From Heterodera schachtii (Eukaryota > Nematoda > Chromadorea > Rhabditida > Heteroderidae): a DNA stretch of 64,000 nucleotides. The translations under genes and the position numbers were made by a program. The number at the start of each line of letters is the position of its first letter. Positions within the stretch are counted from its first letter, which is position 1. Of the stretch, positions 1-17,963 are shown piece by piece. The stretch is from positions 2,231,102 through 2,295,101 of the forward strand of contig SIJG01000006.1 in the NCBI GenBank assembly GCA_023374025.1, read 5' to 3'. The notes below the pieces were generated by a model, which had not been told where the DNA came from, searched no databases, and was given only the letters and a program-made list of their open reading frames with translations.

Positions 1-290
1 TTTGCTTCATTTTTTATTTTACACTACCTAAGGCTGAAATTATGCCAATATTTGACATTATTTTTGTCATTTTAAACCCCAAAAGGTTGAAATTATACCA
101 ATATTCGTACCATTACGAAAATTTTTTTTCTATATGTCTTTTAACACGCCCTAAACGTTGAAATTATGCCAATATTCGTCATCATTTTGAACTTTTTGTT
201 AATATTTGTTCTTTTGAACCCCCTAAAGCCTGATTGTCTTTTTATTTTTAATCCATATTTTAGACATTTCTTTTGCATCAAATCTAAAAG
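1..290 (+). repeat. A/T-rich tandem repeat array in the upstream intron of the first SSB gene
   Basis: Degenerate units of roughly 55-75 bp, each with a core like 'gctgaaattatgccaatat' followed by 'tttgtc...ttttacaccccaaaa'. The same units fill 15,540-16,560, where leader exons place them in a long 5' intron of the second SSB copy. By analogy this stretch is the 3' part of the same intron for the first copy, and its leader exons lie left of the window. The splice acceptor of copy 2 ('ttttgcag') reads 'ttttgcat' here, so copy 1 would need another acceptor, possibly 'attttag' near 262. Confidence 0.7.
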
Positions 291-291
291 C

Positions 292-1004
292 ATGAGCGGA
301 CTGAAACGCTTCCAACTCACATCTTCATCCAACAAACGACCCGCAGACGAATTTCCATCCCATCCAAAACAGCTGAGCGAAGTGGCGAAGTTCAATGCGC
401 CGGGAATATTTTTTGTACGTGCAAAGGTGGCAGACCTGCAGTTTTCGTTGTATAAGGTTATTAATTTTGAAAATTTTTAATAATTTTTCTTTATTTGCAG
501 GCCTGCCCGCTTAAATCCTCCGGCAGTGTGCCATGTAAGAAAAAGCTCGACGATGAGATGTTCTGCCGCGGATGTGACCATCGTGCCAACAGCCCACTCC
601 AATGTCTCTTCTTGAGACTCGACCTTCAAGACTGCGAAGACCTTGAAATCAGCCAAAAAGTGACCGTCTTCTCCAACGTTGCAGAGGACTACCTGGCCAT
701 GAGGGTCAATCAGTTTGCCGACATGGTCGAAAAGTGCTCCGAAAAATTGGAAGCTTTGCTTCAGTCAAAGTTGGGACAGACTTTGACCTTCAAACTCAAT
801 CTGAAGGTTAGGAAATTTGTTTGTTTTTTTTGTTGACTCTGAGCCAGTTAAAATCATTAATTTAAGGCAAAGGGCGGCGGCGAGTTCACCACAATGGATT
901 GGATTGCTGCGGCGATACTTGTGGACAAAAAGAATGAAGCGGACAACGAAGATGGAGAAATCATCGAACTTGACATTGGGAAGAAGCGTGCCAAAAAGAA
1001 CTGA
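292..1004 (+). CDS. Maverick-encoded RPA70-like single-stranded-DNA-binding protein
   Basis: Three exons (292-456, 501-806, 867-1004) with GT/AG introns and consistent phase give about 202 aa. Exon 2 resembles the C-terminal DNA-binding domain of replication factor A1: a four-cysteine ribbon (C-x9-C-x9-C-x2-C, from 'ACPLKSSG' to 'FCRGCDHR') followed by 'VTVFSNVAEDYLAM', like the OB-fold strand and 'FxExAExxL' region of RPA70. The tail is acidic, then ends in 'GKKRAKKN', a possible nuclear signal. It probably coats ssDNA during protein-primed replication. It lies 160 bp upstream of the polymerase on the same strand. The RPA assignment rests on the ribbon spacing and these short matches. Confidence 0.72.
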
Positions 1005-1166
1005 TTTCGGCCGTTATTGGGCCGAAGCCAATGTTGATTAACTGTTGCATAGGAATAAAATTTGAAGAAAAATTTTTTTTAATTTGATCAAACTGTTTCG
1101 CCAAACAATTATTTTTGCATTTAATCACTCTTTTCATTGAAAAAGAACACCCCAACAGCCTCAACA

Positions 1167-4100
1167 ATGAAACGAACGGGAGACGAACCATCAACCTCAT
1201 CATCAGCTACCCTTGAGGACTACACCACAGCGGCGGCGGCGGCCTCTTCCTCGCCTACAATCCCCATTTCTGATGGAGTTGCGAAACGACAACGCCGCCA
1301 AAGTTGGGATTTTAAAAGCATGGCCCATTTTGAGGACCATCATCTGCGTCAACAGCAGCAGAAGCAGGAGTCTCAGGCCATTCCAATGGTTGGACAAGGA
1401 CGCGCTCATCAGCAGGTGGAGGATGGCGTGGAAAGCGATGAAGAAGCTGACAATGCCGAAGATCACAAGGAGCTGACGAGAACCCTTTGTTTGAACAGCT
1501 ACAGTACTATGTGCACCGGGTGGAGCGCTTTGCGCTTCATCGACATGTGACCGAATTTGTACTCAACGGACAACATGACGAGCCGGAGGAGGCACTTCTC
1601 AGTGCATTCGAGCATATAATAGGACAAGCGATACGTAACGCAGAGGCGGGTTCAGAGCAGGATCGAGGTAGCACAGCTGGTCCTCGGCGACGCGTACTTA
1701 AACTAGGCGTTATGCTAAATGGAAAAGGTATTTTCTAAATGGATTTGTAAACTGATTTAGTCCGTATGTATAGGACTGAGCGACCCAATTGTTTTGCCGG
1801 TTCGTCCACCTGAGCAAAACACTGCTGAGGTGCTGATGGCCGAACTTGACAAGTTGGGACAATCAGACGGTGACGAGGATGTGCATGGCGGTGGGATGAG
1901 CAAACGCTCGCTCTTGCTCAGTGAGCCAATAGAAATTGTTGTCACATGCATTGCGCCTCCTGTTGGCGCAGCACCAGCGCTTCCACCCATACCAACATTG
2001 GGGTTACGACGAGCGGAACATGATTCGAATTTCCAACACGGGCGACAATTTTTGCCTATTCTATGCGTTGGTTGCGACACGTGCCTATACCGATGCTGAG
2101 TTGTCGAACTTCACTATGCGTCGACAAGCAACAGAATTGGAACAAAGTTCAAACAGCAACATTATACCGTCAGATATTGTACAACGTGTGATGAGACGAA
2201 CAGATTTCTGCTCTGACTACAAGGCGTTTAACCGGCTCGTAGGCCAATCGGGAACGGATGAAAACAATGGTAAAGGATCTGATGCGCGCAGCAGAAATTG
2301 CAACAGACCATGAGGCATATGGAATGGAGCACCTCGTCAAAATACAACAACATTGGGTATGAGTGATAATAATTGTTTTTAAATTTAAATTCAAATAAAA
2401 GGACCGTATCTATACCGGAATGTACCGGATTGTACTGTTCACGGACCAGCCTGAGGAGCTGCCACGGCCAATATGGAAAGGACCGATGGGCCGCCGCTTC
2501 TGTGTGTCACTGTTTCTATCGGATGGACACTACCACGGGATCAAAAAAATACACTGCTTCTTCAAACTTGGGAGGAAATATTGTGTTGATTGCGAATGCT
2601 TCTATGCTCACGACGCTAAACACACAATGTCCTGCAAAAGTCGTTGTCACCAATGTGGAAAAGGTTATTGATTATGTCCTTATATTATTATAATTTAGTT
2701 GTTTTTAGTTGGACCTCAATACCCTTGCGTAAGAGAGCAAGGTGTCTGCATACGCTGTCAGCAATGCAACAGGTTCTTCTTCTCCCAAAGCTGCTTTAGC
2801 GGTCACCGCGCACAGATGTGCAATTTGATTAAACGCTGCGATGAATGCAACCGAACTTTCCAAATGGATAGAAAAAATCCACACAAATGCTATAGCAACT
2901 ATTGTACACGATGCAAGGTTTTTATTTGAAATTTATCCTATACGTATTTAACATCCCAAAAAAAAACCAGGTATACCATGAGAAGGAAGGCGCGTGCTTC
3001 ATCAAACCTATTCTGGTGCCCGACGAAAAACCAAAATACCGAATGGTCTGCTGGGACACAGAGACGCGGTTGGAAAAGTTGCAACAGGCGGGACAACAAC
3101 GACACAAAGTCAACTACCTGTCAGCACGTGTTACCTGCACAGAGTGCTGTGATTCTGAAAATGGTCTGAGATGCAACTGTCAAATTTGTATGACAACATA
3201 CGGGGCGATTGAAAGAATGAAGGATTGGAGCGAAGCGGAAGGGCATGAACCAATTGCGGCATTTGTCGAGTGGATTTTGAAGGCATGGGACAAAAAGTAC
3301 CAAACATTTATTTGGGTGAGTTAGTGATCATTTCAACATCATTGTGATGCAAAAATATTATAGGCACACAATGCTTCGAGATTTGACGGACATTTTGTGC
3401 TAAAATACCTCGGCGAGACCAAACGACGACCTGAAGTCATCATGAATGGGCTCAAAATTTTTGAGTTTCGTCTACAACATTCTCGACGCCACTCAAAGCT
3501 CACATGGCGAGACTCATGCCTACTGATGCCAATTCGTCTGGAAGAAATGCCGAAAACCTTCAGTCTCAACTGTGCCGATAAACCATTCTTCCCCTACGCT
3601 TTCAACCGAAGGTTTGTATGTCCAAATGAGTGTAATTTAAATGATTATATTTCTCAGAGAAAATTACAACGTGCATCTTCAACATTTACCGGACAAGGAG
3701 GATTACTGCCCTGGGTCAATGAAGCGGGACAAATATGAAAAATTCATAAAATGGTGTTCATACGATTTGGTATTTTTATTGTTATAGTTTTTTTAGGTAT
3801 GACGAGAACAAAAATACACCGTTTTATTTGCCGGACGAACTAAAGACGTATTGTCGGAACGATACGGAGATTCTTCTCGCTGCTGTCGTCCAATTTCGCC
3901 AGATTCTGATGCGGGAGATCACTGATGGCTTTGATGTGCTTCCGCTCAGTGCTACTATTGCAAGGTCTATTATGCCAATAGGTTTTCTAATTTAATTTCT
4001 CTATTCAGCGTTTGCATGACCATCTTCAAAGGGAAATTCCTTAACGAAAAAGAGCTTGCCATCGTGCCTGAAGGCGGTTACGAGCGGAACGACAGGGCTA

Positions 4101-6194
4101 GCGTCTTCGCCATCAAATATTTGGACTGGCGCTCCAAGCGAGACGGTGTTCGCATACAGCACGCTGGAAATGGTCTCGAAAAGAGATGGCGGCAGTTCAA
4201 ACTTGATGGGTGGATTGCGGAGCAGAACAAGTGCATAGAAGTTCTCGGCTGCTACTGGCACGGATGTGAGAGCTGCTTCAAACCTGACGACGAACTGGTT
4301 GACGGAAAAACATGCCGAGAACTCAACGATGCTACCAAACTGCGTTTGCTAAAACTACAGGAGCCTGTTCCAGCTGAGGATGCTTACGGTGGAGAAGATG
4401 AACAAGGCCTTGACGTGGAAGAGATTTGGGAGTGTCAGATCCGAGAACAGCTCAAAAGAGATGATGAAATGCGAGATTTTTTCGACGACTTGGGGACCGA
4501 CCGGGGGCCCATCGACCCACGTCAAACATTCTACGGAGGCAGAACTGGGCCGCTTCAGCTGATTGCAGAGCCAAAGGAGGATGAGAAGATTTCTGTCTTC
4601 GATATCGTCAGCCTCTACCCGTGGGTCAACTATGCCACCGACTACCCGACCGGAATACCCGCTGTCATCCACCCCACCGTTGAGGAGATGATCGTCGACT
4701 GGACTCGACCGGAGCATTTACAATACCAAGGAATTTATCGTGTGCGGGTTATTCCTCCAAAAGGGCTCAGAATTCCGGTTCTTCCACTAAAAATCGACGA
4801 ACGCCTCCTGTTCTGCTGCTGCCATCGTTGTGCTGCCAAATTTCGGAAGTTGAACACACGACGAGTGCACAAGTGCACACACACGGATGAGCAGCGGGCT
4901 TTTACAGGAAACTTCACGCATATTGAGCTGGCAAGAGCCTTGGAAACTGGCTACCGAGTGGACAGATTCTGGAGAGCTTGGCACTACGATGAATGGTATG
5001 AGTTTGTTAAGGAATCTTAATATTTTTTAAATTTAGGAGTGATGGAATATTCAAGGACTATGTACGTCTGTTGATCAAATTAAAGGTCTGAATAATTTTT
5101 TTTTAAAAGTTAAATAATGTCCAAATTGCAGGTGGAGGCCAGCGGTTTTCCTGATGGTGCCAACACTGTGGAACAACAGCAACAGTTCGCGGACGAGTAC
5201 AGAAGAATCTACAGTGTAAATTTGGACCTGGAAAATGTGCGGAGAAATCCTGGATTGCGCTTCATCTCTAAGCTGATGCTCAACAGTCTTTGGTTGGTAC
5301 CAAGAATTTTAGTCAAAATAAATAACACATTTAGGGGAAAATTCGGCATGCGAAATGAATTAGGCGCGAACAAAGTGCTAACAAGGCCACAGGAATTTTT
5401 CAGCCTCATCATGGATCATAAAATTGTAAGCCAAATGTGTAAATGAATTTTCAATTTTGTACATTGTTTAGGAAGTGTCGGCTGTCATCCCTTTGTCAGA
5501 CACCGCTGTCCGTGTCATGTACAAGAGCAAAAAGAATTTCGTCAGCGAACACACATCCAGCAACATTGTGATAAGTCTATGGACGACCAGCCGTGCTCGC
5601 CTCAAGCTGCTCGATTTTATGACACAAATCGATCGAACAGAGGGAGCCAAACTGTTATATACGGTAAAATGCTCTAATATTGTCAAATACATTTGCCCCA
5701 ACCTTTAGGACACCGACAGCGTTGCTGTGCTCCATAAACGTGACATCGTGCCCATCCAGACAGGAGAATACTTGGGGCAGATGAGCGAGGAGTATCTCGA
5801 CTACGAGATCAAAACTTTTGTCTGCGGAGGTAAAAAAAATTTTCAATTTTTTAATTTTTATTCTAAAATTTCAGGCGCAAAACAATACGGCTTTCGAATG
5901 CTGAACAAAAGGACAGGAGAAGTGGAATACGTACAAAAGATCCGTGGCATTACATTCGACGTGAACAACAGTAAGGCGCTGCAGTTTGAACACTTCCTGC
6001 AAAAGGTGAAAAATTACGGACGGAACACTGGTGACGACAACGATGATGCTCCTGCCGTGTTTTCCTACGACAAAATAATGCCAACACGAGACAGCCGAGT
6101 CATCACACGTGAGCTACGCAAAAAATACATGCCAATATGTCAAAAAGGAATAATCAACGAGCAATACGAAGTCTACCCATTTGGATATGAATAA
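1167..6194 (+). CDS. Maverick/Polinton family-B (protein-primed type) DNA polymerase, about 15 exons, with frame breaks
   Basis: Exons: 1167-1727, 1774-2356, 2402-2663, 2709-2917, 2971-3315, 3364-3611, 3658-3753, 3797-3964, 4009-4995, 5037-5085, 5132-5292, 5335-5425, 5472-5663, 5709-5829, 5875-6194. The N-terminal third is Cys/His rich ('CVDCECFYAHDAKH', 'CIRCQQCNRFF'). Exonuclease motifs follow: 'CWDTET' (about 3050), 'HNASRFDGHF' (about 3370), 'YCRNDTEIL' (about 3850). Polymerase motif A is 'DIVSLYP' (4601), motif B 'NSLW/GKFG' is split by an intron at 5293-5334, and motif C 'YT/DTDSV' is split by the intron at 5664-5708. 'KIRG' lies near 5938. Every catalytic motif is present. Three single-base frame breaks lie in exons 1 and 2 (near 1479, 1940-1985 and 2255), so this copy is either decaying or carries assembly errors. 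The first ATG (MKRTGDEP) is chosen because it follows the SSB stop closely and opens a long frame. Confidence 0.9.
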
Positions 6195-6312
6195 TGAATT
6201 TTAAAATCATATTGTATTATTAATCAAAAACAAGTCTTATTAACACATATTTATCGTCATGAGAATGTAGCAATACAACAATTGTTTCAGTGAAAAATGA
6301 AAATGCTTCCGT

Positions 6313-7157
6313 TTAAAGGGTTTCTGTTTTGGAGACACGTAACAATTCAATGGGAAAAATATCGCGGTGGTGACCACCACCAAACTGAACAACACATGGA
6401 AGGGTTGGGTACTTTAACATGACACGATGGCGAGTGTAAAGGTGTTGCTGAACCGTGATTCCTAGGAATCCCCGGTATGCAAACACCTGATTTGCACCGA
6501 TGGGGCACAAAGCATCGGGAATAATCTTAATATTTTTTCTAAGATGGACAGTCTCAATGTCCAATTGGCTCAGATAGGCAAGGTTCTCAGTCCGTCGTTT
6601 CTGTAGTTGCTTCGTCAGTCGGTATGGGCCACAGTTGTTGAACCGGCACAGCACTCTCACCAGGTTGTAGTCTCGTTTTCGCGTTCGTCGTCGCTCCAAT
6701 AGTTGATCAGATCCAGTTCGTCCACGATCAGGTTCATGCTGCTGCTGTTCGGTTGTTCGCAATGGCGTGACAGACACAGCGGCGAGTCTCCCGGGCAAAT
6801 CTTCAAGTCCTTCAGTTCCACATACAGAGGTTCGCTCCTTAAAAAAAACAAAATGAAAAAAAATTAATGTTTATTCAGAATAACTTACCACACTATTCCC
6901 TCGTACTTCTTCTTCGGATAACATGTTGAGTACAGTTCAACGTCAGCAATCAATTCGAGCGACCCGTCGATATGCACAGGTTGGTTCGGATGGTCAGCGT
7001 TTGAAATGTGTACACAGTCGACAGCACAAAGTGGGTTGGGATAGAGACAATTCCCACCTTCAGGCCCACTTTTAATTTCGTCTTTCAAACAGGTGTACAG
7101 GTCGTCTACACTGCTCAACCCGTAACTGTCGATCAGATAGCGGATTGCCCTTTGCAT
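6313..7157 (-). CDS. Argonaute-like protein ending in a PAZ domain, with no MID or PIWI; one frame break
   Basis: The last 120 or so residues resemble an Argonaute PAZ domain: 'ITVQQHLYTRHRVMLKYPTL', 'PCVVQF' and 'IFPIELLRV' match the family pattern 'TVaqYFk.rh.l.LkYPhLPC..vg' and 'yyPlEvc.i'. The frame stops ten codons later at 6313, and the polymerase of the opposite strand begins its 3' end at 6194, so no MID or PIWI domain can follow. Upstream, an exon at 7157-6889 is joined by a clean intron (6888-6838, GTAAGT...TTTTAAG) to a frame reaching about 6657. Moving from that frame to the PAZ frame requires a shift between about 6800 and 6660, where no AT-rich intron is visible. The N-terminal half is not recognisable to me. 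Open sequence continues upstream of 7157, so the true start is uncertain. It lies in the late, leftward gene block. Confidence 0.68.
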
Positions 7158-7265
7158 GCAATAAGCAGGTCAATATGGTGCGGCAGTTTTGGCAAATGAC
7201 AGTAGCCTTTCTTAAATTTAGGAAAGAAATGGACCAACTGAATGCAAACAACAAAAAAGCATTCT

Positions 7266-8300
7266 TTAAATACTCCGACTATAGGCTCCACCCCTTTGAT
7301 CACTCGCTGTTGCAGTTTCATACGGTATATTCAGCAATTGTTGATGTTGGGACGAATAGGCGTCGTCAATGAACGGGTTGCTGTAATAACCGGTGCTACC
7401 AGACCCATTAAGTGGATTCTTTCGGTTCACTCGCCGTAGCTGTTTAAGTATGTATGTGCAAAGTACAATTAGAAACAGATTGAACAGATACGAGATCGGC
7501 ATCCAAGCGTCCGACATGCGTAGATGAGCAAAAACGCCGCGGTTAATGTTTTCGTCTTTGGGTTTATAAATTAGATAATTAAATCGGACGTCACTTGAAT
7601 TGGTTACAAAAGTTAGCGCACGATTCCCTTTTGCATAGTCGGAAATGTGAAATTTATAGATGCGCTGGTCTCTGATCACAAACACATGGTTGTCCACCAA
7701 AGTAAAGTCGCTTTTATCTGGTGGAAGAAAAGCGACAAAGTTGCTCTTCAAAATCGTATGGGCGGAAGATTGGTTTTTTCGAAGCCACCAATGCTCCAGG
7801 TATTCAAGCTCTATTTCACTGATTCGCCTCTGATGTTTATCGATCAGAAACAATCGACCCGATAGGTGATCAAACACAACCCGTCCATGTTTGGACAGTC
7901 GTTGCACAATCTTCTGCTGGTGACCACGGAAGATAGCCGTCTCACCAGATTCTCTGTCTTCAAAAAAGGTAAAACTATACCCATTGTATTCAAAACAGGC
8001 CAATGGTGACATTTTCACCAATGATTTCATTTTTAAAAACACACTCTGATAGCTGTGCAAAGTGTACACATTTTGAAGTGAAACGGCCCATTCGTTGTCA
8101 CGCTCACACTTCTCTATTCGGCATGCTGTATTCCAACTATAACCAAAGTGTTGTGCTGTCGCATCCTTTGAAAAGGTACGATATTTGCCGCTGTCGAAAT
8201 AGTTTTGATTGTCAACCGTCAAATCCACATTTATCAGCTCCGAGTGCAACAGTAACGGCACACAGCTGAGGAAAACCAGACCCACGTAAAAAGCATTCAT
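7266..8300 (-). CDS. Maverick single-pass membrane glycoprotein (candidate surface or attachment protein)
   Basis: The frame is open from 8324 (352 aa). I prefer the Met at 8300 (residue 9) because a TATA box at 8352-8341 would start transcription near 8315, and 'MNAFYVGLVFLSCVPLLLHS' is a better signal peptide. The ectodomain has N-x-S/T sites (residues 184 and 242 of the longer form) and several cysteines. A hydrophobic span, 'PISYLFNLFLIVLCTYIL' (about 276-294), is followed by a basic stop-transfer 'RRVNRKN' and a 55-residue tail. Repeated strand-like stretches such as 'GRLFLIDKHQRRISEIEL' and 'HVFVIRDQRIYKFHI' suggest beta-propeller blades, but this is inference. No similarity to a known fusogen is visible. 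Its position beside capsid and protease genes suggests a virion envelope role. Confidence 0.65.
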   Translation of the reverse strand: MNAFYVGLVFLSCVPLLLHSELINVDLTVDNQNYFDSGKYRTFSKDATAQHFGYSWNTACRIEKCERDNEWAVSLQNVYTLHSYQSVFLKMKSLVKMSPLACFEYNGYSFTFFEDRESGETAIFRGHQQKIVQRLSKHGRVVFDHLSGRLFLIDKHQRRISEIELEYLEHWWLRKNQSSAHTILKSNFVAFLPPDKSDFTLVDNHVFVIRDQRIYKFHISDYAKGNRALTFVTNSSDVRFNYLIYKPKDENINRGVFAHLRMSDAWMPISYLFNLFLIVLCTYILKQLRRVNRKNPLNGSGSTGYYSNPFIDDAYSSQHQQLLNIPYETATASDQRGGAYSRSI

Positions 8301-8340
8301 AAAATGAACCGTCATTTTTCTCACTGTTCAAAAAACGTGA

Positions 8341-8352
8341 GCTTTTATAGAC
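8341..8352 (-). promoter_or_regulatory. TATA box of the glycoprotein gene
   Basis: On the minus strand GTCTATAAAAGC, the same core as the boxes before the integrase and the major capsid gene. Confidence 0.55.
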
Positions 8353-8797
8353 CGTTGACCAAATTTCTGACAAACCATTTCACCAGGTAATCTGCCATGC
8401 TTCGAGTCTTGCGCAATGTGTCAATCACATGACAGTAAGGCACGCCAGAACATCGGCTTGTCAAAAAATATATACAAAAATGACCACACGTATCGGATGT
8501 GGGAAGTTGAATTTGATCTTTAGTGACCAGTACCTCTTTAAAAGTGTTGAGGTAGGATGCTAAATCGGGGTTTGGGTGCTCACCAAGACTGTCAAAATAT
8601 TCCACCCTTCGATGGCTTGAAGCATAGCAAGCCACCCAGTGCTCACCTCGTGTCCCTTCTTTGCCCGTATTCACGACCATACAATGAGGAAATTTTGAAA
8701 CACGCTTCGGAATTCGATCAGATGGGAAAACGCCAATGAATTTATTTTTGGTGGGGCGCAGCTTTTTCAGAATTATTTCCAACTGAGCTGAATTCAT
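8345..8797 (-). CDS. Adenain-like cysteine protease (Maverick PRO)
   Basis: 150 aa, the usual length for Polinton proteases, which mature capsid proteins. Catalytic residues are visible with adenovirus-protease spacing: His53 in 'GEHWVACY', Asp69 in 'VEYFDSLG', Gln97 in 'QIQLP', and Cys104 in 'DTCGHFC', seven residues after the Gln as in adenain. The reading frame is intact. It sits between the major capsid gene (30 bp upstream) and the glycoprotein, whose TATA box overlaps this gene's last codons. A TATA-like CCTATAAAAG lies about 125 bp upstream, inside the capsid gene. Confidence 0.9.
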   Translation of the reverse strand: MNSAQLEIILKKLRPTKNKFIGVFPSDRIPKRVSKFPHCMVVNTGKEGTRGEHWVACYASSHRRVEYFDSLGEHPNPDLASYLNTFKEVLVTKDQIQLPTSDTCGHFCIYFLTSRCSGVPYCHVIDTLRKTRSMADYLVKWFVRNLVNGL

Positions 8798-8826
8798 TAA
8801 TGCTTTTCAGTGTCAGTCAATTGGAA

Positions 8827-10194
8827 TTACACACTTCCGTCTGTACTCAGAACACGGTCTGCGTTAATGGACAACACAGAATCGAATTCACCAAGGACAA
8901 GCATCTCATATCCATCCGCTTTTATAGGCTGCTCAAATTGCACCTTTATCGTGCACGTGCCTTGTCTGATCAACTCAAAACCAGGTGTGTCCTCCAGAGT
9001 GGAGGTCAGCGGAATTACGAAAAAGGCCCAACCGTTAAGAAAACGCTGCATCCCAATCGAGACCGTTTTGGTGTCTGAGTCATCCAAACCCAGGCCTGCG
9101 TACATATCTACAAATGCACGAACAAAACGGGGCTGTGCACCATCGAAGGACAGCAAATACGGGGTGCTGGGAAAGGTCTGTCCGTTTGCCTCGACACTAA
9201 TAGAACGTACATTGGCGTGCTCAAATTTGTAGGGTGACATTTTTCGGTTACCGGAATATGCGTCGGTTGAAACGAAAGTGCAAATTAGGCGACGAGGCAA
9301 CGTTGAGGTGAACACGTTGTGTGCCAGCTCGGTCCGGCCTGTGCCAAGAAAAATGGACCGCATCTCAATTTTACGCAAGGGATATTTTGCTGAAGTGGAC
9401 TCCAATTGTCGGCTAATGGCAAGGTTAAGGCTCGGTGTGACGTCCACAGTGCGCACATAGAGACGCATGTCATGCACACGGATACGGTACTCTTTCTTAT
9501 TTTCCTGTAGTGTACCATCTGGTTTTTTGTATGGGGGCGTAAGCAGGAGGAATGAATCATTGTTGCGGTGGATGGTGAATATTACATCCTGATTGTTCAA
9601 CATCAATGCATTTTGACGTGCCAAATCAAAATTAAGTTTTACCATCGTCTCACACTGTTTACTGCCTGAAAACCGTGCCGCACGTGCAGTAAAACCTGGG
9701 TTTGTTGCGCTGTTCTGGTCATCATCGTCGGGATAGTAGCACGATGCCTCGTGGAAAGCCTTACGAATTTCCTGTGAATAGCCCAACTCCTTCATTATGT
9801 AGTCACGGTAGTGATAATAAATTGAACTGTCAAACACCTCAATGCCTGAAATATTGACCTTCAGCGAACGGACAAAGCTGCTACCAAAGTTTTGGATGAC
9901 CCCAACATGTTTATCGTTTGGGTCCGTGTCACTGAGTGCTACCCATTCTCCCGCATCATTCTTCCGTTCAATTGAGCTGAGCAGATACATGTAGGTTTTG
10001 CTCAAGTCACAATATTGACTGTCCGAGAACAGGCGAAACAAATATGGACCTGTCTGATTAAGAGCAGACAGGGGCAGCAATTCACGAACGTTTGTCTTGT
10101 TTATGGCCACATTTGTTGGCGGCAGAGAAAACAATGACAGACTTCCTTCCAGACCCTCAACACTGTCTTTGTCAATCTTCTTAATTACGCTCAT
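8827..10194 (-). CDS. Maverick major capsid protein (double jelly-roll type)
   Basis: 455 aa, one open frame. Its length, its position between core protein and protease, and the start 'PLSALNQTGPYLFRLFSDSQ' with 'YCDLSKTYMYL' match the pattern of Polinton hexon-like major capsid proteins, which begin with a short arm and then 'yiDLskTyl'. The C-terminal half ('GWAFFVIPLTST...GFELIRQGTCTIKVQF') fits the second jelly roll. It should form the pseudo-hexagonal capsomers of the virion. A TATA box with possible 5'-UTR intron (GTAAGA at about 10,284 to TTAAAG near 10,225) lies upstream. The family call is from pattern memory, not a search. Confidence 0.85.
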   Translation of the reverse strand: MSVIKKIDKDSVEGLEGSLSLFSLPPTNVAINKTNVRELLPLSALNQTGPYLFRLFSDSQYCDLSKTYMYLLSSIERKNDAGEWVALSDTDPNDKHVGVIQNFGSSFVRSLKVNISGIEVFDSSIYYHYRDYIMKELGYSQEIRKAFHEASCYYPDDDDQNSATNPGFTARAARFSGSKQCETMVKLNFDLARQNALMLNNQDVIFTIHRNNDSFLLLTPPYKKPDGTLQENKKEYRIRVHDMRLYVRTVDVTPSLNLAISRQLESTSAKYPLRKIEMRSIFLGTGRTELAHNVFTSTLPRRLICTFVSTDAYSGNRKMSPYKFEHANVRSISVEANGQTFPSTPYLLSFDGAQPRFVRAFVDMYAGLGLDDSDTKTVSIGMQRFLNGWAFFVIPLTSTLEDTPGFELIRQGTCTIKVQFEQPIKADGYEMLVLGEFDSVLSINADRVLSTDGSV

Positions 10195-10290
10195 TTTCTA
10201 ATGAGTTTTTTGTTATGTTTCTCTTTAAAAAAATTGAATTTATGGTGGTGAGAATGTAGTTAATAGTGAAAAACACAAATTATCTTACCT

Positions 10291-10300
10291 ATTTATAGAC
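10291..10300 (-). promoter_or_regulatory. TATA box of the major capsid gene
   Basis: Minus strand GTCTATAAAT, about 97 bp before the capsid ATG; a potential splice donor follows at once, which would account for the distance. Confidence 0.5.
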
Positions 10301-10321
10301 TTCGGAGGCGGTGCTAACATG

Positions 10322-10747
10322 TTAATGTGCAAAAGTAAGCTGATCGATGATCTGTCGTTTCCCTCTCAATGTGCCAGTTTTGTTATTTTTTCTATGAGTG
10401 ATTGCCTTGTGCCGTTGCCGCCCACCCTTCCCGCACTGGTTGAGTTTTTCGGCCAGATTCTCAAAACCTTGCATAGCCTGAGTTTTGAGAGACTCTTTAA
10501 ACGCCTTTCCCTGTGCGAGATCGTCAAGCATTCGTGTCCCTGCGGAAATGCCCTCCTTTGAGGCAGACTTTAGCAGGTTTGTGGCTACGGGCATCAGAAA
10601 CCGTGAAATATTTTGTAATAGACCGCCACCACGCTGAAATTTATTGCCTACAAAATACTGCAGCTCACCACTTCCCTCCTGCTGCTGCTGTAACGCAAGA
10701 AACGCGGACCAATTGACATTGTCCGGGTTAAAAACAACGTGCGTCAT
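10322..10747 (-). CDS. Small basic virion core protein, adenovirus pX/pVI-like
   Basis: 141 aa. After a Q-rich start it reads 'YFVGNKFQRGGGLLQNISRF' then an amphipathic helix region 'LMPVATNLLKSASKEGISAG', followed by a basic tail ('GGRQRHK', 'HRKNNK', 'RGKRQII'). This layout (glycine-rich processing-like site, 'G..l.....P....l......g...', basic end) recurs in small Polinton and adintovirus proteins related to adenovirus pX/mu and pVI. A likely role is genome condensation or membrane disruption after cleavage by the protease. It lies between the two capsid genes, the usual site. No separate promoter is evident. Confidence 0.6.
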   Translation of the reverse strand: MTHVVFNPDNVNWSAFLALQQQQEGSGELQYFVGNKFQRGGGLLQNISRFLMPVATNLLKSASKEGISAGTRMLDDLAQGKAFKESLKTQAMQGFENLAEKLNQCGKGGRQRHKAITHRKNNKTGTLRGKRQIIDQLTFAH

Positions 10748-10767
10748 AACTGTTTTTTGCTTTTTTA

Positions 10768-13005
10768 CTAAAATAGTTTTTGTCTAAAATGTAATGTGAT
10801 TACGGTAGTTCCCCAACCAAATTTTACGTAACGTCCAAATGCTGTCTGAATTTCAATGTTAATTTCAGAAATGCGTTTATTTTGGAGAGAATGAAAAATT
10901 TCATTGGTATATATAACCTCTGGCATGTCCAACCCCGGTGTTCCTGACACGTTGACAACTCGCAGCAGCGGTGCCATGCGGTCACCTATGATGGAGTCCT
11001 CCACCAGTTTAGGCGCGTAAACGTACAGCTGACGGACACCACCAGACAGATCAGGTGGATATTTTGCCGACTGATTTTTGTAAATGCGTGTTTTGTGATC
11101 AAAACCCAACACATAGGACAGCTGTTTGCTCAAATCAACGTGCATTACTCCTGGGCCCATTCGAATGCCGAATCGCTGAGTTATTTCATTGTAAGCAAAT
11201 TCAGCGGCCATTTTGGATTCACGTTGTTGTGCCATTAATTGTCCATGCTCTCCATGAAGCACTTCTTCGATGAGTTTATATGTTGAAATGCGGTGTTGAT
11301 TCTCGCTGTCTTTACCTTCTTCCTGTAGCATCTTCTGCTGTGCATGTGTTCCATCAACCATTCTGTCCACTTGTTCGTCGATCAGCTTTTCAATTATTTT
11401 CTCCTTCCTTCTCTCTGTCGCTACCGTTGATTGCTTAGCAACAATTTTTGGGTTATTGGAGGTCAACGCGGCTGCTTCAGGTAAATTTCCACCGTCTTCA
11501 ACTCGAGTCGCTGATGTAGCAGCATCATCGGACTGTTCTAATCCACTTGATGCCGGCGTACCTGCGTCACCTTTATCAGCAATACTATTATCTTTAACTG
11601 CTAAATTTTGTTCAGCTGGCTTCTCGGATGTAGCGGTGGCAGTAGTGGTGGTGTTTTGTTGGTCGTCTGGATTTGCGGGCTCATCTGGTGAAAAGGAGTC
11701 TGTTGGGGTGGTATTAGTCCTACTGGAGCCCTCAGCGACAGCATTGAGGCCTGAGTTATCTTTCCCTGTCTGCGCATCTCTTTTTTTAGCCTCGTACTCT
11801 AAAGCGGCAAACCGTTTACGCCTGTAGTCAATCAGCCGTTGAATGCTCTCTATTTGTCGCTGTAGCGACTCCCTTTCCGTTGCGTCAGTTTCAAATTCAA
11901 ACTTTTCCCTCAATTCCCTCTTCTTAGTGTACTCAAGTTGAAGCGCTTCATAATTTTTCTGGATTGCTTGCCAATAATTCATTGGATTGGCTTGGAAGAA
12001 TTCTTGGACGAAGGACAGGTTTTGTTCATGGCTTAACCGTTCAAACTCCTCTTGAGACCTTTTCTGGTCACGTTGTAATGCTGCGTTGTTTAAGATTTCC
12101 ATCTTTCTTCCAAAAACGTGTAGGGAATTTCTCATTCGTTCTGTTTGTGAATTGAGCTCTTCAAGCCTTTTCAAATCTTTAACTCCTTCATACTCTCCCA
12201 TCTTTGTTTGTAGATCTAACACATCTCGGAGATAACTTGACCTCCACTCGTCCAACTGCTCTCTATAATTGTCGGGGTATCGGGCAAAGAAACGGTCAAT
12301 GAGTCTTTGTTCATTGGCTTCTTGCTGCTCACCGTCCCTTCTCTTCGCCTCTTCTTCAATCAAATGCAAATGTTCTTTCAGAAAAGTTTCTCGCCCCTGA
12401 AAGACCCCGAGCTCCGTCGAAAGAAATGTTTTTCTTTCTTCATCCTTTGTTGAATTGTACTCCTTTGTCATTTTTTCAACCCTTTCTCTGAGTTGATAAT
12501 GTTTTTTTCTCAATTCTCCAATCTGTTGCCAATAGTCAAATGGATTTCGAGTGAAGAAATTCTCTACTTCGATAACTCCAGCGCCTGTTTCTGACAATTC
12601 GGTTTGTCGTTTGGCTCTTTTGTTGGGTGTACCATCATTTAATGATGAGCCGCCAAACTTTGTATCGTAAGCATTCTGGGTTATTTGATTCAGTGTTTTT
12701 TGTAAACTTTGTACACTTAGGAATTGTACATTTGGAATCTTCACTGACAAATTGATAAACTTTTGCGATTCCTCATCAGAGTTCCCGGCATCTTCTCTGT
12801 AGTTAGGATTAACCAGTTTGACAGAGATAGAGTCATCCTCGTCCACACTGATCGACGGGAAAGAATACGGATAGATTATTGCTGATAATGCGACGGACCA
12901 TTTGGAGTCAAGCTCTAAAGTGTGCGGAAGTCTAACCGTAAAATTTGAAGCCGTATTTCCTGGACCAGGTGTGTTTGAAGGAAGCACAATGTAAAAATCT
13001 TCCAT
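10768..13005 (-). CDS. Maverick minor capsid (penton-like) protein with a large coiled-coil insertion
   Basis: 745 aa. Residues 1-120 ('MEDFYIVLPSNTPG', 'WSVALSAIIYPYSF') and 600-745 (ending 'WGTTVITLHFRQKLF') are the start and end of the Polinton minor capsid protein, a single jelly roll that caps the vertices. Between them are about 460 extra residues. There are three repeats, starting with FF at 150, 239 and 336, each 'FFxxxPxxY[WR]' followed by about 75 residues of charged coiled coil ending in 'KRDxx'. Next comes a T/S/P/E-rich low-complexity stretch (415-525) and a further helix (530-600). The frame is intact and 3 bp separate it from the integrase stop, so the two may share a transcript. 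Confidence 0.82.
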   Translation of the reverse strand: MEDFYIVLPSNTPGPGNTASNFTVRLPHTLELDSKWSVALSAIIYPYSFPSISVDEDDSISVKLVNPNYREDAGNSDEESQKFINLSVKIPNVQFLSVQSLQKTLNQITQNAYDTKFGGSSLNDGTPNKRAKRQTELSETGAGVIEVENFFTRNPFDYWQQIGELRKKHYQLRERVEKMTKEYNSTKDEERKTFLSTELGVFQGRETFLKEHLHLIEEEAKRRDGEQQEANEQRLIDRFFARYPDNYREQLDEWRSSYLRDVLDLQTKMGEYEGVKDLKRLEELNSQTERMRNSLHVFGRKMEILNNAALQRDQKRSQEEFERLSHEQNLSFVQEFFQANPMNYWQAIQKNYEALQLEYTKKRELREKFEFETDATERESLQRQIESIQRLIDYRRKRFAALEYEAKKRDAQTGKDNSGLNAVAEGSSRTNTTPTDSFSPDEPANPDDQQNTTTTATATSEKPAEQNLAVKDNSIADKGDAGTPASSGLEQSDDAATSATRVEDGGNLPEAAALTSNNPKIVAKQSTVATERRKEKIIEKLIDEQVDRMVDGTHAQQKMLQEEGKDSENQHRISTYKLIEEVLHGEHGQLMAQQRESKMAAEFAYNEITQRFGIRMGPGVMHVDLSKQLSYVLGFDHKTRIYKNQSAKYPPDLSGGVRQLYVYAPKLVEDSIIGDRMAPLLRVVNVSGTPGLDMPEVIYTNEIFHSLQNKRISEINIEIQTAFGRYVKFGWGTTVITLHFRQKLF

Positions 13006-13008
13006 TAT

Positions 13009-14130
13009 TTATTCAAATGATCTCCGTTTCACTAGGTCTGAGTCACGGACCCAGCTGTTGTATTTGTCAGACAAGCCAACCCAACGGACGAAATGTTCTT
13101 TGACTCCGTTTCGTGTACGCGATTTTAGCACTTCTGCGCGGTAGGTACCCTTTTTCGTTGTCTTTACAAGTTCTTGGTCGTAGAAGATTCCCTTTATGTC
13201 TTCTCCGTTCAAATCACGTATTCTATACGAGTGCGGGTCTGTGTTGTTTACACGTTGGACCCTAAAAAGTTCGTCAGTAAAATTGGGATAGTAACCTTTT
13301 GAAAAATGACCTTTCTCTTTGCTAATTCTTACAATATCGCCAAATTTGAATTTTGCGTTTACTTTGATTTCCTTGTCACCGGTGTGTTCTTTATATAGAC
13401 GTTTTCTTAACTCCGCAGCATTCTTAAAGGTTACAGAAGCTGGACTTGTACCAATGGTACGGTTTGTTGTCCTATTCAAATTATCTGCAATTTTATCTAT
13501 CACCCCTAACCACCTTAGAGTGTTATTTTCGCTAAAATATTTGTATAAGCGCTCCTTGAGTGTTCGATTCGCCCTTTCAACCACACCCGCATGTAGGCTA
13601 GGACTGTACATTATGTGTTTGATTATGTCCTTATGCTTCCAGTATTCAATCATCCGTTTTGCTTGGAACTCCAAACCTGCATCACTGTACAGTTTGTTAG
13701 GCAGCACACCGGCTTTTTTGAACACCTTTTCAAATGCTTCAATCATGTGTTCGCTTTTCTTCGACTCCGACTCTGCGGTAAAAATTTTTCTACTAAGCAC
13801 ATCGATACAAACCAAAATGTAGCGGTATCCATCGTTATGGGCCTTTATCGTATCCATAATACACAGGTCACATTGCCAGTCTGTATGCAGACCACTCGGC
13901 ACCGTTTTGAGCCTAGGAAACTTGTTTCTCCGTGGCTTAAACAATGTGTAAGTGCGTTGGCGATGAAGAAAATCATAGACATTGTGTAAGGAAATTTGTG
14001 CATTTCTTCTCTTGGCCTCCTCCCAAACTTTTAGCATACCAGCATAGCTGGCCGGTGAACGTAAATCATAATAAATTTGCTCCAATAATTTATCCACAGT
14101 CGGCTGCTGTGCAATTATAGTCTTGCCCAT
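13009..14130 (-). CDS. Maverick retrovirus-like integrase with chromodomain
   Basis: 373 aa, intact. The catalytic core shows the DD35E triad: Asp88 ('WQCDL'), Asp150 ('LYSDAGLEF') and Glu185 ('AGVVERANRTLKE'). Residues 255-325 are the SH3-like C-terminal part ('FKFGDIVRISKEKGHFSKGY'), and about 328-370 form a chromodomain ('YRAEVLKS...EHFVRWVGLSDKYNSWV') that would read histone marks and steer insertion. It cuts and joins the linear element into host DNA. TATA box at 14,190-14,181. Confidence 0.95.
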   Translation of the reverse strand: MGKTIIAQQPTVDKLLEQIYYDLRSPASYAGMLKVWEEAKRRNAQISLHNVYDFLHRQRTYTLFKPRRNKFPRLKTVPSGLHTDWQCDLCIMDTIKAHNDGYRYILVCIDVLSRKIFTAESESKKSEHMIEAFEKVFKKAGVLPNKLYSDAGLEFQAKRMIEYWKHKDIIKHIMYSPSLHAGVVERANRTLKERLYKYFSENNTLRWLGVIDKIADNLNRTTNRTIGTSPASVTFKNAAELRKRLYKEHTGDKEIKVNAKFKFGDIVRISKEKGHFSKGYYPNFTDELFRVQRVNNTDPHSYRIRDLNGEDIKGIFYDQELVKTTKKGTYRAEVLKSRTRNGVKEHFVRWVGLSDKYNSWVRDSDLVKRRSFE

Positions 14131-14180
14131 AATTCTGGTCTAAACTTGCGTTTTGGTTCCATTCTATGTAAACCTCGGGT

Positions 14181-14190
14181 TTTTATAGAC
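14181..14190 (-). promoter_or_regulatory. TATA box of the integrase gene
   Basis: Minus strand GTCTATAAAA, 51 bp before the integrase ATG. Confidence 0.55.
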
Positions 14191-14197
14191 GATGAAT

Positions 14198-14725
14198 TCA
14201 CATTGACAAGCACAATTTTTTTTCTTTTTCACTGTGCTGCGCCGCCGGACCTTCCCCCGTTTGTGGCATTTTTTGAAGCAGTTTCATCATTTCTGGGTCT
14301 TTGGAGATGCGTTGAATGAAGAAACGATGGCCTCTGGGCACATCATCGCGCTGACCTGTCAAATGTTTTAACGACTCGGTGAAATGAGAACCTGAAACGG
14401 GTTTATTGAAATTAGTCAAAATTTCTCCGCTGCTTGCATTGACACCGAATTTTTTGAGGTCCTTCCCGATAATGCCCATCATTTTTGGGAAATTTTTCGG
14501 GCTGGTCCTTAATGAAACGGTTGGCGTCTTTTGGTGCGGCGTTTTCCCCGACGAAGCAGCAGAAGAAGCAGCAGCAGGCTCAACCTGATCAGAAGCAGTT
14601 GAAAAATCCGTGTCCTCTTCTACATCAGTGTTGCTCTTACTTACGCCACCAAATGATTGAATTGAAGTCGAATTGCGGTGTGGTGCATTCACATTTGACG
14701 GTGTTTGTTGTTTTTGAATGCCCAT
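14198..14725 (-). CDS. Maverick protein of unknown function, 175 aa
   Basis: I do not recognise it. The N-terminal half is S/T/A-rich and low in complexity (residues 1-75). The C-terminal half is more ordered ('MMGIIGKDLKKFGVNASSGE', 'HRFFIQRISKDPEMMKLLQK') and ends in a charged tail. It is the most upstream gene of the leftward block. Its length, open frame and placement support a real gene. It carries no Walker A motif, so it is not the missing packaging ATPase. Confidence 0.6.
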   Translation of the reverse strand: MGIQKQQTPSNVNAPHRNSTSIQSFGGVSKSNTDVEEDTDFSTASDQVEPAAASSAASSGKTPHQKTPTVSLRTSPKNFPKMMGIIGKDLKKFGVNASSGEILTNFNKPVSGSHFTESLKHLTGQRDDVPRGHRFFIQRISKDPEMMKLLQKMPQTGEGPAAQHSEKEKKLCLSM

Positions 14726-14759
14726 ATACGGCGCAACGTTTGGTGCAGTAACTGCACTG

Positions 14760-15080
14760 TTTTAAAGCCAAAGTGTGACCGTTTAAATTGAATTAAAGGT
14801 TAGGCGGGGGGGGGGGGGATAAGCAGAAGGAGGCGAGAACAGCGGGAAAAAACTCTGAATGCCTGGGGGCATCTGCTCGCGCAAAAATCGGAGATTAAAA
14901 TCGGAGATAAGGATTTGTGTGAAGGAAGAGCGAAGGGATATACAAATATTCTGGTCCAAGTGACACCAGACAAAGGAAGGGCCAGCGTTCGATAGAAAAG
15001 CTTAAGGGGAGGGGGTTTTTGATTAATGAAAGCAAGTTCTAAGCTCTGTCTAGACAATATGCCCGGAGGCGTGAAATGTG
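14760..15080. other. Divergent intergenic region of the Maverick with a G13 tract
   Basis: Non-coding DNA between the leftward late genes and the rightward leader of the second SSB copy. It holds a run of 13 G (14,806-14,818) and a short direct repeat 'aaaatcggagat'. I see no terminal inverted repeat here. Confidence 0.5.
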
Positions 15081-15408
15081 GGGGTATTTAATGCGCGATT
15101 TGAACGCCAAAATTCACACTTGACAACGAATCTGCAGCCAATTGCCCAAGATCGACAACTGACAAAGCACTCCAACACATTGACAACAATCAAGAGCAGA
15201 ACATCAGGACAACAAACGACAATTCTTGGAGGACAAAAATCGGTGAGTAGGAAAAATTATTAATTTAAACATTTAAGTCTTGGACAAAATTTAAAAATAT
15301 TTTAACATTTTAGCCCGAGGACTCCAGACAACATTGACTACTAAATACAATCGTTCATCTGCTGTGGACAAGCGTGCCATATAAACGCCAACCACACAAC
15401 AGACAGCG
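15081..15408 (+). promoter_or_regulatory. Promoter and two 5'-leader exons for the second SSB copy
   Basis: A TATA-like 'GGGGTATTTAA' (15,081) is followed by a CAA/ACA-rich leader without ATG, ending at a strong donor (15,242, GTGAGT). A second leader exon runs 15,314-15,408 (acceptor TTTTAG, donor GTGAGG). The next good acceptor, TTTTGCAG at 16,584, sits 15 bp before the SSB ATG. The layout indicates a spliced 5' UTR whose third part is the SSB coding exon. Confidence 0.5.
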
Positions 15409-15539
15409 GTGAGGTAGATTTTACTGTACATAAAAACCCTACATCTAAAATGTTTTTTAATTTTTAAAATTTCTTTTAAATTTCATTTAAATATTTGAAT
15501 TTTTAAATTAATTTAAGTTCTTTTTCGGATTTTTTTCAC

Positions 15540-16560
15540 TTTTGGTCATTTTTAATTCCCAAAAGGCTGAAATTATGCCAATTATTTCCCCATAATTTCG
15601 AAATTTTTCTAATATTTGTCACTTTGACACCCAAAAGGCTGAAATTGCCAATTCGTCAATATTTGTTGTTTAGATCCCAAAAGTTGAAATTATGCCAATA
15701 GTTCCCCAAATTTCGAATTTTTTCTAATATTTGTCACTTGACACCCAAAAGCTGAAATTATGCCAATATTCGTCAATATTTGTCGTTTTACATCCCCAAA
15801 AGGCGAAATTGCCAATATTTTACCCATAATTTCGAATTTTTTCTAATATTTGTCACTTTGACACCCAAAGGCTGAAATTATGCCAATATTCGTCAATATT
15901 TTGTTGTTTTAGATCCCCAAAGGGTTGAAATTGCCAATAGTTCCCCATAATTTCGAAATTTTTCTAATATTTGTCACTTTGACACCCAAATGGCTGAAAT
16001 TATGCCAATATTTGATACTATTGGTCATTTTACACCCCCTAAAGGCTGAAATTATGCCAATATTTCACCATCGTTTCGGATTTTTTCCACTATTTGTCCT
16101 TTTACATCCCCTAAAGGTTGAAATTATGCCAATATTCGTCAATATTTTGTCGTTTTACATCCCCAAAAGGCTAAATTCACCATTATTTCGAGTAAGAGCA
16201 TACAATTTGTCCGGGTACGGTACTGATGTCACCCATGTCATAAGGTATTGGTTTGATCCTAAACCTATTGCAAGGGTGCAGGCCATCTGAGCGCCAGGCC
16301 AACGATTTTTTGCTTCATTTTTTATTTTACACTCCCTAAGGCTGAAATTATGCCAATATTTGACACTGTTTTGTCATTTAAACCCCAAAAGGCTGAAATT
16401 ATGCCAATATTCGTCACCATTTCGAACTTTTTTTTTCTATGTCTTTTTACATCCCCTAAACGTTGAAATTATACCAATATTCGTCACCATTTCGAACTTT
16501 TTTGTTAATATTTGTTATTTTAAACCCCCTAAAGCTTGATTGTCTTTTTTTTTTTAATCC
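15540..16560 (+). repeat. Degenerate tandem repeat array inside the SSB 5' intron
   Basis: About fifteen units of roughly 55-75 bp sharing 'ggctgaaattatgccaat', 'cgtcaatatttgtcgtttta' and 'cacccccaaaag'. Same family and orientation as 1-290. It lies wholly between leader exon 2 and the SSB coding exon. Confidence 0.75.
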
Positions 16561-16599
16561 ATATTTTAGACATTTCTTTTGCAGCAAAATTCAAAAAGC

Positions 16600-17238
16600 A
16601 TGAGCGGACTGAAACGCTTCCAACTCACATCTTCATCCAACAAACGACCCGCAGACGAATTTCCGTCCCATCCAAAACAGTTGGGCGAAGTGGCGAAGTT
16701 CAACGCGCCGGGAATATTTTTTGTGAGTGCAATGTGGCAGATCTGCAGTTTTCGTTGTATAAAGTTATTAATTTGAAAATTTTTAATAATTTTTTTGTTT
16801 ATGCAGGCCTGCCCGCTTAAATCCTCCGGAGGTGTGCCATGTAAGAAAAAGCTCGACGATGAGATGTACTGCCGCGGATGTGATCATCGTGCCAACAATC
16901 CTCTTCAATGTCTCTTCTTGAGACTGGACGTTATGGATTGCGAAGATCCCGAAGTCTGCCAAAAAGCGACCGTCTTTTCCAACGCTGCAGAGGAATACCT
17001 GGCCATGAGATCGAGCAGTTTGCCAACATGGTCGAAAAGTGCCCTGAAAATTGGAAGCTTTGCTTCAGTCTAAGTTGGGACAGACTGTGACCGTCAAACT
17101 CAATCTCAAGGTTAAACATTTTGATTTTTTTTTTTGTTGGCTCTGAGCCGGTTAAAATCATAATTTAAGGCAAAGGGCGGCGGCGAGTTCACCACAATGG
17201 ATTGGATTGTTGTGGCGATTCTTGAGGACAAAAAGAAT
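16600..17238 (+). pseudogene. Second, decayed copy of the RPA70-like SSB gene
   Basis: Close duplicate of 292-920 with the same three-exon layout. It has a one-base loss in exon 1 (near 16,727) and another in exon 2 (near 17,012), each breaking the frame. Similarity stops in exon 3 at 'gacaaaaagaatg' (about 17,238), where unrelated SINE-like DNA begins, so the gene lacks its 3' end and no polymerase follows. Confidence 0.85.
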
Positions 17239-17254
17239 GTAGTCACCGTTTTTC

Positions 17255-17480: not shown

Positions 17481-17486
17481 AATTGA

Positions 17487-17850: not shown

Positions 17851-17963
17851 GCCCCTGGGATCACTCTGGGTGGTCTCGACACTTAAAACTCTGGGTGTAA
17901 AAATGGGTGATTTTTTGGGCGGGGGGAGGGGTCCAGACGTCTGTAAATTACACCTTATACTAC

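What the first reader, a model, noticed from the sequence alone, without database searches (positions are those of the whole stretch)
6313..7157. A Maverick carrying an Argonaute PAZ domain without MID or PIWI
The C-terminus matches Argonaute PAZ ('LKYPTLPCVV...DIFPIELLRV') and the gene stops at once, with the polymerase gene ending 119 bp away on the other strand. PAZ binds small-RNA 3' ends; without PIWI there is no slicing. Inference: a virus-like transposon may have captured part of a host Argonaute and used it as a small-RNA decoy against piRNA/22G silencing, the main nematode defence against such elements. One frame break in the gene leaves its present activity open.
Basis: partly seen in the sequence, partly recalled or inferred. 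Interest (0 to 1): 0.9.

Follow-up and report, generated by a model that had tools for sequence, protein, structure and literature searches.

The report
PAZ-only gene in nematode virus-like transposons
Virus-like transposons in a cyst nematode carry, as a conserved gene under purifying selection, only the small-RNA-end-holding piece (PAZ) of the host's Argonaute silencing proteins, and it may help them interfere with the worm's RNA-based defence.

The parts
6313..6837 (-). PAZ-only open frame (frame f0); well-modelled PAZ core about 6328-6669; basic R/Q-rich stretch before it
6657..6836 (-). overlapping frame f1 that the canonical splice enters; ends (W, stop) where PAZ begins; same layout in 8 of 8 group-A copies examined
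6838..6888 (-). short GT..AG intron, same place in 9 of 9 group-A copies (46-53 nt as counted in the call)
6889..7157 (-). upstream exon (about 90 aa), found by tblastn in the 8 fetched group-A loci (L009-L016) and not in the 6 group-B loci; no known domain
2902..6194 (+). type-B DNA polymerase in several open pieces, convergent with the PAZ gene
   Evidence: (DNA_pol_B_2 9.5e-14 on 4016-5017)
8345..8797 (-). adenovirus-type protease (Peptidase_C5)
   Evidence: 7.7e-6
8827..10194 (-). capsid-like ORF, best conserved between the element's relatives (name inferred from recall and place, no convincing Pfam hit)
13009..14130 (-). integrase with chromodomain
   Evidence: rve 3.5e-9, Chromo 1.2e-5

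Best explanation
A stand-alone PAZ domain of Argonaute type is a conserved accessory gene of Mavericks, and a module of Bel/Pao envelope-bearing retroelements, in this cyst nematode; similar short proteins exist in related plant-parasitic nematodes. Most likely it is a silencing-interference protein. It takes hold of small-RNA 3' ends, or of the PAZ-docking step, in the worm-specific Argonaute (WAGO) / 22-26G-RNA pathway. Lacking MID and PIWI, it cannot present a guide or slice, and so it lowers silencing of the element. Shown here: PAZ fold, no detected PIWI, recurring genomic place, several groups, two classes of element, purifying selection. Inferred: descent from WAGOs, RNA binding, target pathway, anti-silencing effect.
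For: PAZ fold by sequence profile and by model: Maverick; envelope-linked PAZ of L028. 0 of 117 places have a detected PIWI within 20 kb, whereas 14 of 89 Pfam-PAZ matches, taken to be the host's own Argonautes, have one within 5 kb. Present in six Maverick groups; the capsid-like protein, where it was in the fetched stretch, has fallen to 34% identity (L026). In L027, PAZ is in one open frame with Pao peptidase, integrase and phlebovirus-like envelope. dN/dS for PAZ: group A 0.23-0.34 in 5 of 10 pairs, the other 5 saturated; group B 0.03-0.15 in 14 of 15 pairs, no amino-acid change in one; group D 0.07-0.15 in 9 of 10, one saturated; L025-L027 PAZ 0.048 against 0.294 for the wider ORF. At the H316 position 26 of 26 element-type PAZs have H, and at R315 all 26 have R or K; R315/H316 are the residues changed in a deposited AGO2 mutant (11gj). 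The 'G(L/I)T..GAN' stretch is shared with host PAZs that I take for WAGO-like (L050-L054; label recalled), not with the ALG-like L049. PAZ identity lies below that of capsid-like, polymerase and protease genes and above the glycoprotein-like one (the degenerate copy L009 is an exception for the last). Globodera pallida has 22-26-nt 5'-triphosphate RNAs antisense to transposons (PMC4323106, passages).
Against: No expression, RNA-binding or suppression data. Y311 (recalled pocket residue) is H in 21 of 26 rows, and the H271-equivalent is Y in 8 of 17 A1 rows (groups D and E and L012), so affinity could be altered or lost. Small RNAs inside WAGOs leave few free 3' ends, so a decoy would have to act early or by docking. 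A conserved PAZ could serve another RNA. Descent from WAGOs is not proven: the 69-column tree has weak deep splits, and it puts the envelope-linked PAZs nearer to the host rows than to the Mavericks (54/65). How group A translates PAZ is not solved; in the overlap the PAZ frame itself shows dN/dS 0.50-1.13 in the diverged pairs. PIWI was sought with one Pfam model, exon by exon, so diverged PIWI exons could be missed.
Confidence: 0.5

Rival explanations
1. The PAZ protein works for the element itself: it binds the 3' end of an element or host RNA for packaging, RNA handling, or carrying small RNAs into particles.
For: It lies with the structural genes, next to the glycoprotein-like ORF or the protease, and behind the envelope in the L027 polyprotein; strong purifying selection in group B (dN/dS 0.03-0.08 in 12 of 15 pairs).
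Against: Mavericks are DNA elements with no obvious need for small-RNA 3'-end binding (general knowledge); the module's company changes (TBP beside it in L023, L024 and L026, an extra exon in group A).
Confidence: 0.2
2. Dominant-negative protein partner: the domain occupies factors that normally dock on Argonaute PAZ, N or linker regions, or on small-RNA makers, rather than RNA ends.
For: The fold is kept while one recalled pocket position is replaced in 21 of 26 rows; H against Y at 316 separates all 26 element-type rows from all 7 host-type rows.
Against: The R315/H316-equivalent pair is kept (R or K, then H) in 26 of 26; H is also what human AGO2 has at 316 (alignment).
Confidence: 0.15
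3. A PAZ fold re-used as a structural or DNA-binding part with no link to small RNAs.
For: PAZ resembles a small OB-like barrel (recalled); no function has been measured.
Against: Conservation falls on the Argonaute motif set (H316, P-C, P.E), and both element classes have it.
Confidence: 0.08
4. The element uses the PAZ protein to turn silencing on rivals or to damp itself (superinfection exclusion), so it is a pro-silencing adapter.
For: Many related elements share one genome (117 places).
Against: No MID/PIWI to carry a guide; nothing seen here speaks for it directly.
Confidence: 0.05
5. A passenger capture without function, or a false PAZ call.
For: The window's own Pfam hit is below the gathering score (17.4 of 28.8 bits); 15 of the 96 matches have stops inside the matched stretch, so some copies are decayed or intron-split.
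Against: Purifying selection, six Maverick groups, two element classes, relatives in other genera and confident fold matches.
Confidence: 0.02

Closest known systems
PAZ domain of animal Argonautes (human AGO2/AGO1, Drosophila Ago1/Ago2; Pfam PF02170)
   Different: About 17-19% identity to the human AGO2 PAZ structure 8thq; encoded without PIWI; Y311-equivalent mostly H.
Nematode worm-specific Argonautes (WAGO); host loci L050-L054 (label inferred, no call names them)
   Same: Shared G(L/I)T..GAN stretch and FPMEVL-type end.
   Different: Host-type rows have Y at 316, element-type rows H (7 of 7 against 26 of 26). L050, L051, L053 and L054 have PIWI within 2.5 kb; L052 has none listed near it.
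Maverick/Polinton elements of nematodes
   Same: PolB, integrase with chromodomain, C5 protease.
   Different: An extra PAZ gene, convergent with polB in 15 of the 15 loci where both are seen, but on the same strand in L060. Earlier nematode Polinton and Maverick papers (Jeong et al. 2023; Widen et al. 2023) are recalled only; the first was not held and neither was read.
Belpaoviridae-like endogenous elements with phlebovirus-like envelope (e.g. Atlas virus of hookworm, PMC9094657, passages)
   Same: Pao peptidase, integrase, DUF5641, Phlebovirus G1/G2 in L027.
   Different: PAZ follows the envelope here; the word PAZ occurs 0 times in that paper's main text.
Viral suppressors of RNA silencing that bind small RNA (recalled class)
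   Same: Would act on the same step, by inference.
   Different: Foldseek over BFVD gave no viral protein at E<=1e-3, best 0.03; suppression not shown.

Membership tests
Argonaute-type PAZ domain (PF02170) | Profile match | tested here: met
   17 of 17 A1 members at E<=0.1, best 3.5e-10; the window member alone is below the curated cut-off
Argonaute-type PAZ domain (PF02170) | PAZ fold | tested here: met
Argonaute-type PAZ domain (PF02170) | 3'-end pocket residues | tested here: inconclusive
   R/K315 and H316 in 26 of 26; Y311 replaced by H in 21 of 26; H271-equivalent H in 9 and Y in 8 of 17 (residue roles recalled)
Argonaute-type PAZ domain (PF02170) | binds small-RNA 3' ends | not testable with these tools
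   needs a binding assay
Argonaute protein | PIWI domain | tested here: not met
   0 of 117 places within 20 kb of any of the 31 detected PIWI matches
Argonaute protein | MID domain | not tested
   in the window there is no room between PAZ and polB (about 119 bp); not searched elsewhere
Dicer (PAZ-bearing) | closest PAZ is Dicer's | tested here: inconclusive
   the 50 rows shown are Argonaute/PIWI chains; lower rows were not shown
Maverick/Polinton | PolB, retroviral-type integrase, adenoviral-type protease | tested here: met
Maverick/Polinton | long terminal inverted repeats | tested here: inconclusive
   no inverted pair of 60+ nt in 1-19000; long direct repeats instead; the true ends were not mapped
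Bel/Pao with phlebovirus-like envelope (L027) | Peptidase_A17, H2C2, rve, DUF5641, Phlebovirus_G2 in one frame | tested here: met
   with PAZ at residues 1640-1688 of the same open piece
Bel/Pao with phlebovirus-like envelope (L028) | Pao polymerase region beside the envelope | tested here: inconclusive
   envelope and PAZ in one frame, but no match to L027's pol in the fetched stretch
RNA-silencing suppressor | lowers silencing | not testable with these tools
   bench test needed

The most novel reading that the evidence does not exclude
A PAZ-only protein, derived from the worms' own WAGO Argonautes, is a widely traded anti-silencing gene passed between two unrelated classes of virus-like element (Maverick DNA elements and Bel/Pao enveloped retroelements) in plant-parasitic nematodes. 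It would be the first virus-type 'Argonaute half' that jams the 22-26G-RNA pathway, with H at position 316 as the mark of the element lineage. (Probability lowered from 0.35 to 0.30 on re-checking, because the weak tree puts the envelope-linked PAZs nearer to host rows than to Mavericks and Bel/Pao is shown for two loci, not three.)
Probability: 0.3. Interest if true: 0.93.

Novelty: new variant of a known kind. Interest (0 to 1): 0.82.

Why it matters
Nematodes of this clade are reported to control transposons without classical piRNAs, by RdRP-made small RNAs (PMC4323106, passages). A PAZ-only gene conserved in the very kind of element those RNAs attack, and present in two unrelated element classes, would be a direct counter-measure and would make an arms race with the expanded WAGOs testable. 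It also gives a large natural set of PAZ variants, with and without particular pocket residues, for dissecting 3'-end recognition.

Tried and rejected
Damage or sequencing error at 6600-6800: rejected, since the intron and the frame change are shared by other copies. Full Argonaute hidden nearby: rejected by the PIWI distances. Chance PAZ likeness: rejected. Upstream exon as an Argonaute N-domain: no support (best hits 0.65 in PDB and 0.21 in Pfam). Viral databases: the IMG/VR scan used one pattern, gave 7 stretches and no relative; no BFVD match at 1e-3. The Foldseek and VIA rows shown were all Argonaute/PIWI chains. Database relatives of the envelope-linked PAZ: none in two searches (only proteins of 0.55-1.75 times the query length are candidates there, and likewise, so full Argonautes could not appear). 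Single or multiple capture: not resolved by a 69-column tree of 30 rows. Both frames used in the overlap: left open, since f1 shows dN/dS 0.43-0.66 but f0 0.50-1.13 in the diverged pairs.

Literature: the listings showed no paper on a PAZ-only gene in Mavericks or Bel/Pao as far as titles and abstract starts tell. These are open-licence papers only, and several listings were cut (15 of 566, 12 of 30, 15 of 1,216, 8 of 35, 12 of 51, 10 of 31). Passages read: PMC4901422, PMC10309623, PMC9094657, PMC4323106.

Not done: whole-genome co-location of the capsid gene and of Phlebovirus_G2, because the genome search answered 'busy'. NCBIfam on three proteins gave nothing.

Rows left out: A1 holds 17 of the PAZ copies fetched; the degenerate copy L009/L002, near-duplicates, group C (intron inside PAZ), L041 and the Bel/Pao-type copies were left out. 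The tree leaves out the 3 group-C rows of the 33 aligned. The wider loci were chosen by class from the match lists, not at random. The L028 model used an alignment that also holds Maverick rows.

Full report
What was checked. The finding claims an Argonaute PAZ domain, without MID or PIWI, in a Maverick at 6313-7157(-). The open frame 6313-6837(-) is there. Alone it hits Pfam PAZ weakly: E 0.0035 for the shorter piece and 0.0044 for the longer, both below the gathering score. I therefore looked for relatives before judging it.

A family, not a single relic. The window's own genome has 178 Mb in 356 contigs. Names of close database relatives point to Heterodera, most likely H. schachtii (P0022 at 95% over 55% of the query, P0004 at 89% over 98%). 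In it the frame gives 96 matches at E<=1e-3, 81 of them without a stop in the matched stretch. A second query from a distant group gives 94. Merged within 1 kb, the union is 117 places. The tool calls such counts lower bounds, and most of the places were not opened. An alignment of 17 open copies (A1) has 16 invariant columns, among them A-Y, V, H, Y, H-R, P-C and P.E. All 17 hit Pfam PAZ at E<=0.1, the best at 3.5e-10 and above the cut-off. The profile finds 27 Argonaute sequences in the PDB, the best human AGO2 PAZ at 5.9e-9; the other two of the 29 matches are weak (0.36 and 0.77).

No PIWI. The genome has 31 PIWI matches. None lies within 20 kb of any of the 117 places; for the 96 matches the nearest is 104,639 bp away. 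By contrast, 14 of the 89 Pfam-PAZ matches lie within 5 kb of PIWI, and I take these for the host's own Argonautes.

Other species. A1 finds 77 database proteins of 90-304 aa, 57 with a precomputed PAZ domain. Where a source names the organism it is Heterodera schachtii or trifolii, Globodera rostochiensis or pallida, or Meloidogyne enterolobii or incognita; others come from short environmental contigs. The search admits only lengths near the query's, so it could not show full Argonautes, and the genomic surroundings of these proteins could not be seen. For the envelope-linked PAZ two searches gave no database relative.

The frame break. Between the upstream exon and 6313-6837 there is a 46-53-nt stretch with GT..AG ends at the same place in 9 of 9 group-A copies. 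The canonical donor leads into frame f1 (SEPLYVEL.. in most copies), which stops exactly where PAZ begins in 8 of 8 copies examined, while PAZ is in f0. Two pairs among the eight are near-identical. In the shared stretch synonymous change is reduced: window against L010, pS 0.42 (f1) or 0.30 (f0), against 0.72 in the upstream exon and 0.84 in PAZ. But amino-acid constraint in the diverged pairs is clearer in f1 (dN/dS 0.43-0.66) than in f0 (0.50-1.13), so whether f0 is translated through the overlap is open. Two database models read the locus differently (P0004 and P0064). So the break is conserved architecture, and the means by which group A makes PAZ is not known. In groups B, D and E an ATG stands just before the PAZ domain.

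Selection. Nei-Gojobori dN/dS for PAZ: group A 0.23-0.34 in 5 of 10 pairs, the other 5 saturated; group B 0.03-0.15 in 14 of 15 pairs, no amino-acid change in one; group D 0.07-0.15 in 9 of 10, one saturated. The pair L025-L027 has 0.048 in PAZ against 0.294 in the wider ORF; all three group-E pairs are saturated. Against L010 the window PAZ protein is 59% identical, the capsid-like neighbour 80%, polymerase 70%, protease 62% and glycoprotein-like ORF 41%. PAZ is thus faster than the core genes but slower than the glycoprotein-like one. In L009, a degenerate copy, the glycoprotein-like pieces (81-90%) are as conserved as PAZ (81-84%) or more so.

Origin. Host-type PAZ pieces L050-L054, which I take for WAGO-like from recall, share a G(L/I)T..GAN stretch and an FPMEVL-type end with element PAZs; the ALG-like L049 does not. 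At the position aligned with AGO2 H316, 26 of 26 element-type rows have H and 7 of 7 host-type rows Y. At Y311, 21 of 26 have H (residue roles recalled, except that R315V/H316A is a deposited mutant). The 26 include four database proteins whose surroundings were not seen. L025/L027 and group A/B copies also share 'T.HL' and 'AN.L.AY.G'-like stretches. This fits one element lineage passed between Mavericks and Bel/Pao. Against it, the 69-column tree has weak deep splits (53-79 SH-aLRT, 65-75 UFBoot) and places the envelope-linked PAZs nearer to the WAGO-like rows than to the Mavericks. One capture or several is open.

Mechanism. The best reading is interference with the WAGO pathway by a PAZ that can hold a small-RNA end or dock in its place but has no MID/PIWI to use it (0.5). 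Against that, PMC9203780 (listing only) reports piRNA-like small RNAs in a clade IV nematode. Passages of PMC4901422 report WAGO enrichment in Meloidogyne and Globodera. Binding, expression and effect are not shown. The altered pocket position and the lack of any assay keep rivals alive: an RNA-handling role in the element's own cycle (0.2), a protein-docking dominant negative (0.15), fold re-use (0.08), a pro-silencing adapter (0.05).

Novelty. Host-gene capture by Mavericks and small-RNA-binding suppressors are known kinds (recalled). A PAZ-only gene shared by Mavericks and Bel/Pao was not seen in the open-licence searches named in Tried and rejected, and no viral relative was found. I rate it a new variant of a known kind, with a stronger reading left open.

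Noticed in passing
L023:4159-4689(-), L026:4109-4672(+), L024:5187-5723(+): Mavericks of groups C and D encode a TATA-binding protein next to the PAZ gene (Pfam TBP 7.1e-28 for L023 and 2.7e-47 for L026; L024 by tblastn): a second captured host gene-expression factor.
   Followed up: partly
L027:1-6132(+), L028:1824-6080(+), L063: Elements with a phlebovirus-like envelope carry the PAZ module behind the envelope; L027 and L063 have a Bel/Pao pol, none was seen for L028. Open frames of 3,240 and 3,380 aa are listed at such places.
   Followed up: partly
window 6657-6837(-): Two overlapping frames with reduced pS, f1 ending exactly where PAZ starts, in 8 of 8 group-A copies examined.
   Followed up: partly
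window 280-939 and 16588-17242: Long direct repeats (85-94% in pieces) about 16.3 kb apart flank the element; no inverted repeat of 60+ nt was found in 1-19000. Unusual for a Maverick, or two elements end to end.
   Followed up: no
L021 (G000:C169:47000-56900): Two Mavericks of group B lie next to each other, each with its own PAZ gene convergent with its polB.
   Followed up: no
P0042, P0068, P0077 (sequences): Database models of element PAZs are named 'Effector protein', 'SET domain-containing' and 'Ubiquitin-like protease family': possible annotation spill-over from unmasked elements into the gene sets of plant-parasitic nematodes.
   Followed up: no
window 1-18000 against 18000-64000: GC is 39-46% in the Maverick part and 22-33% in the rest of the window.
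   Followed up: no
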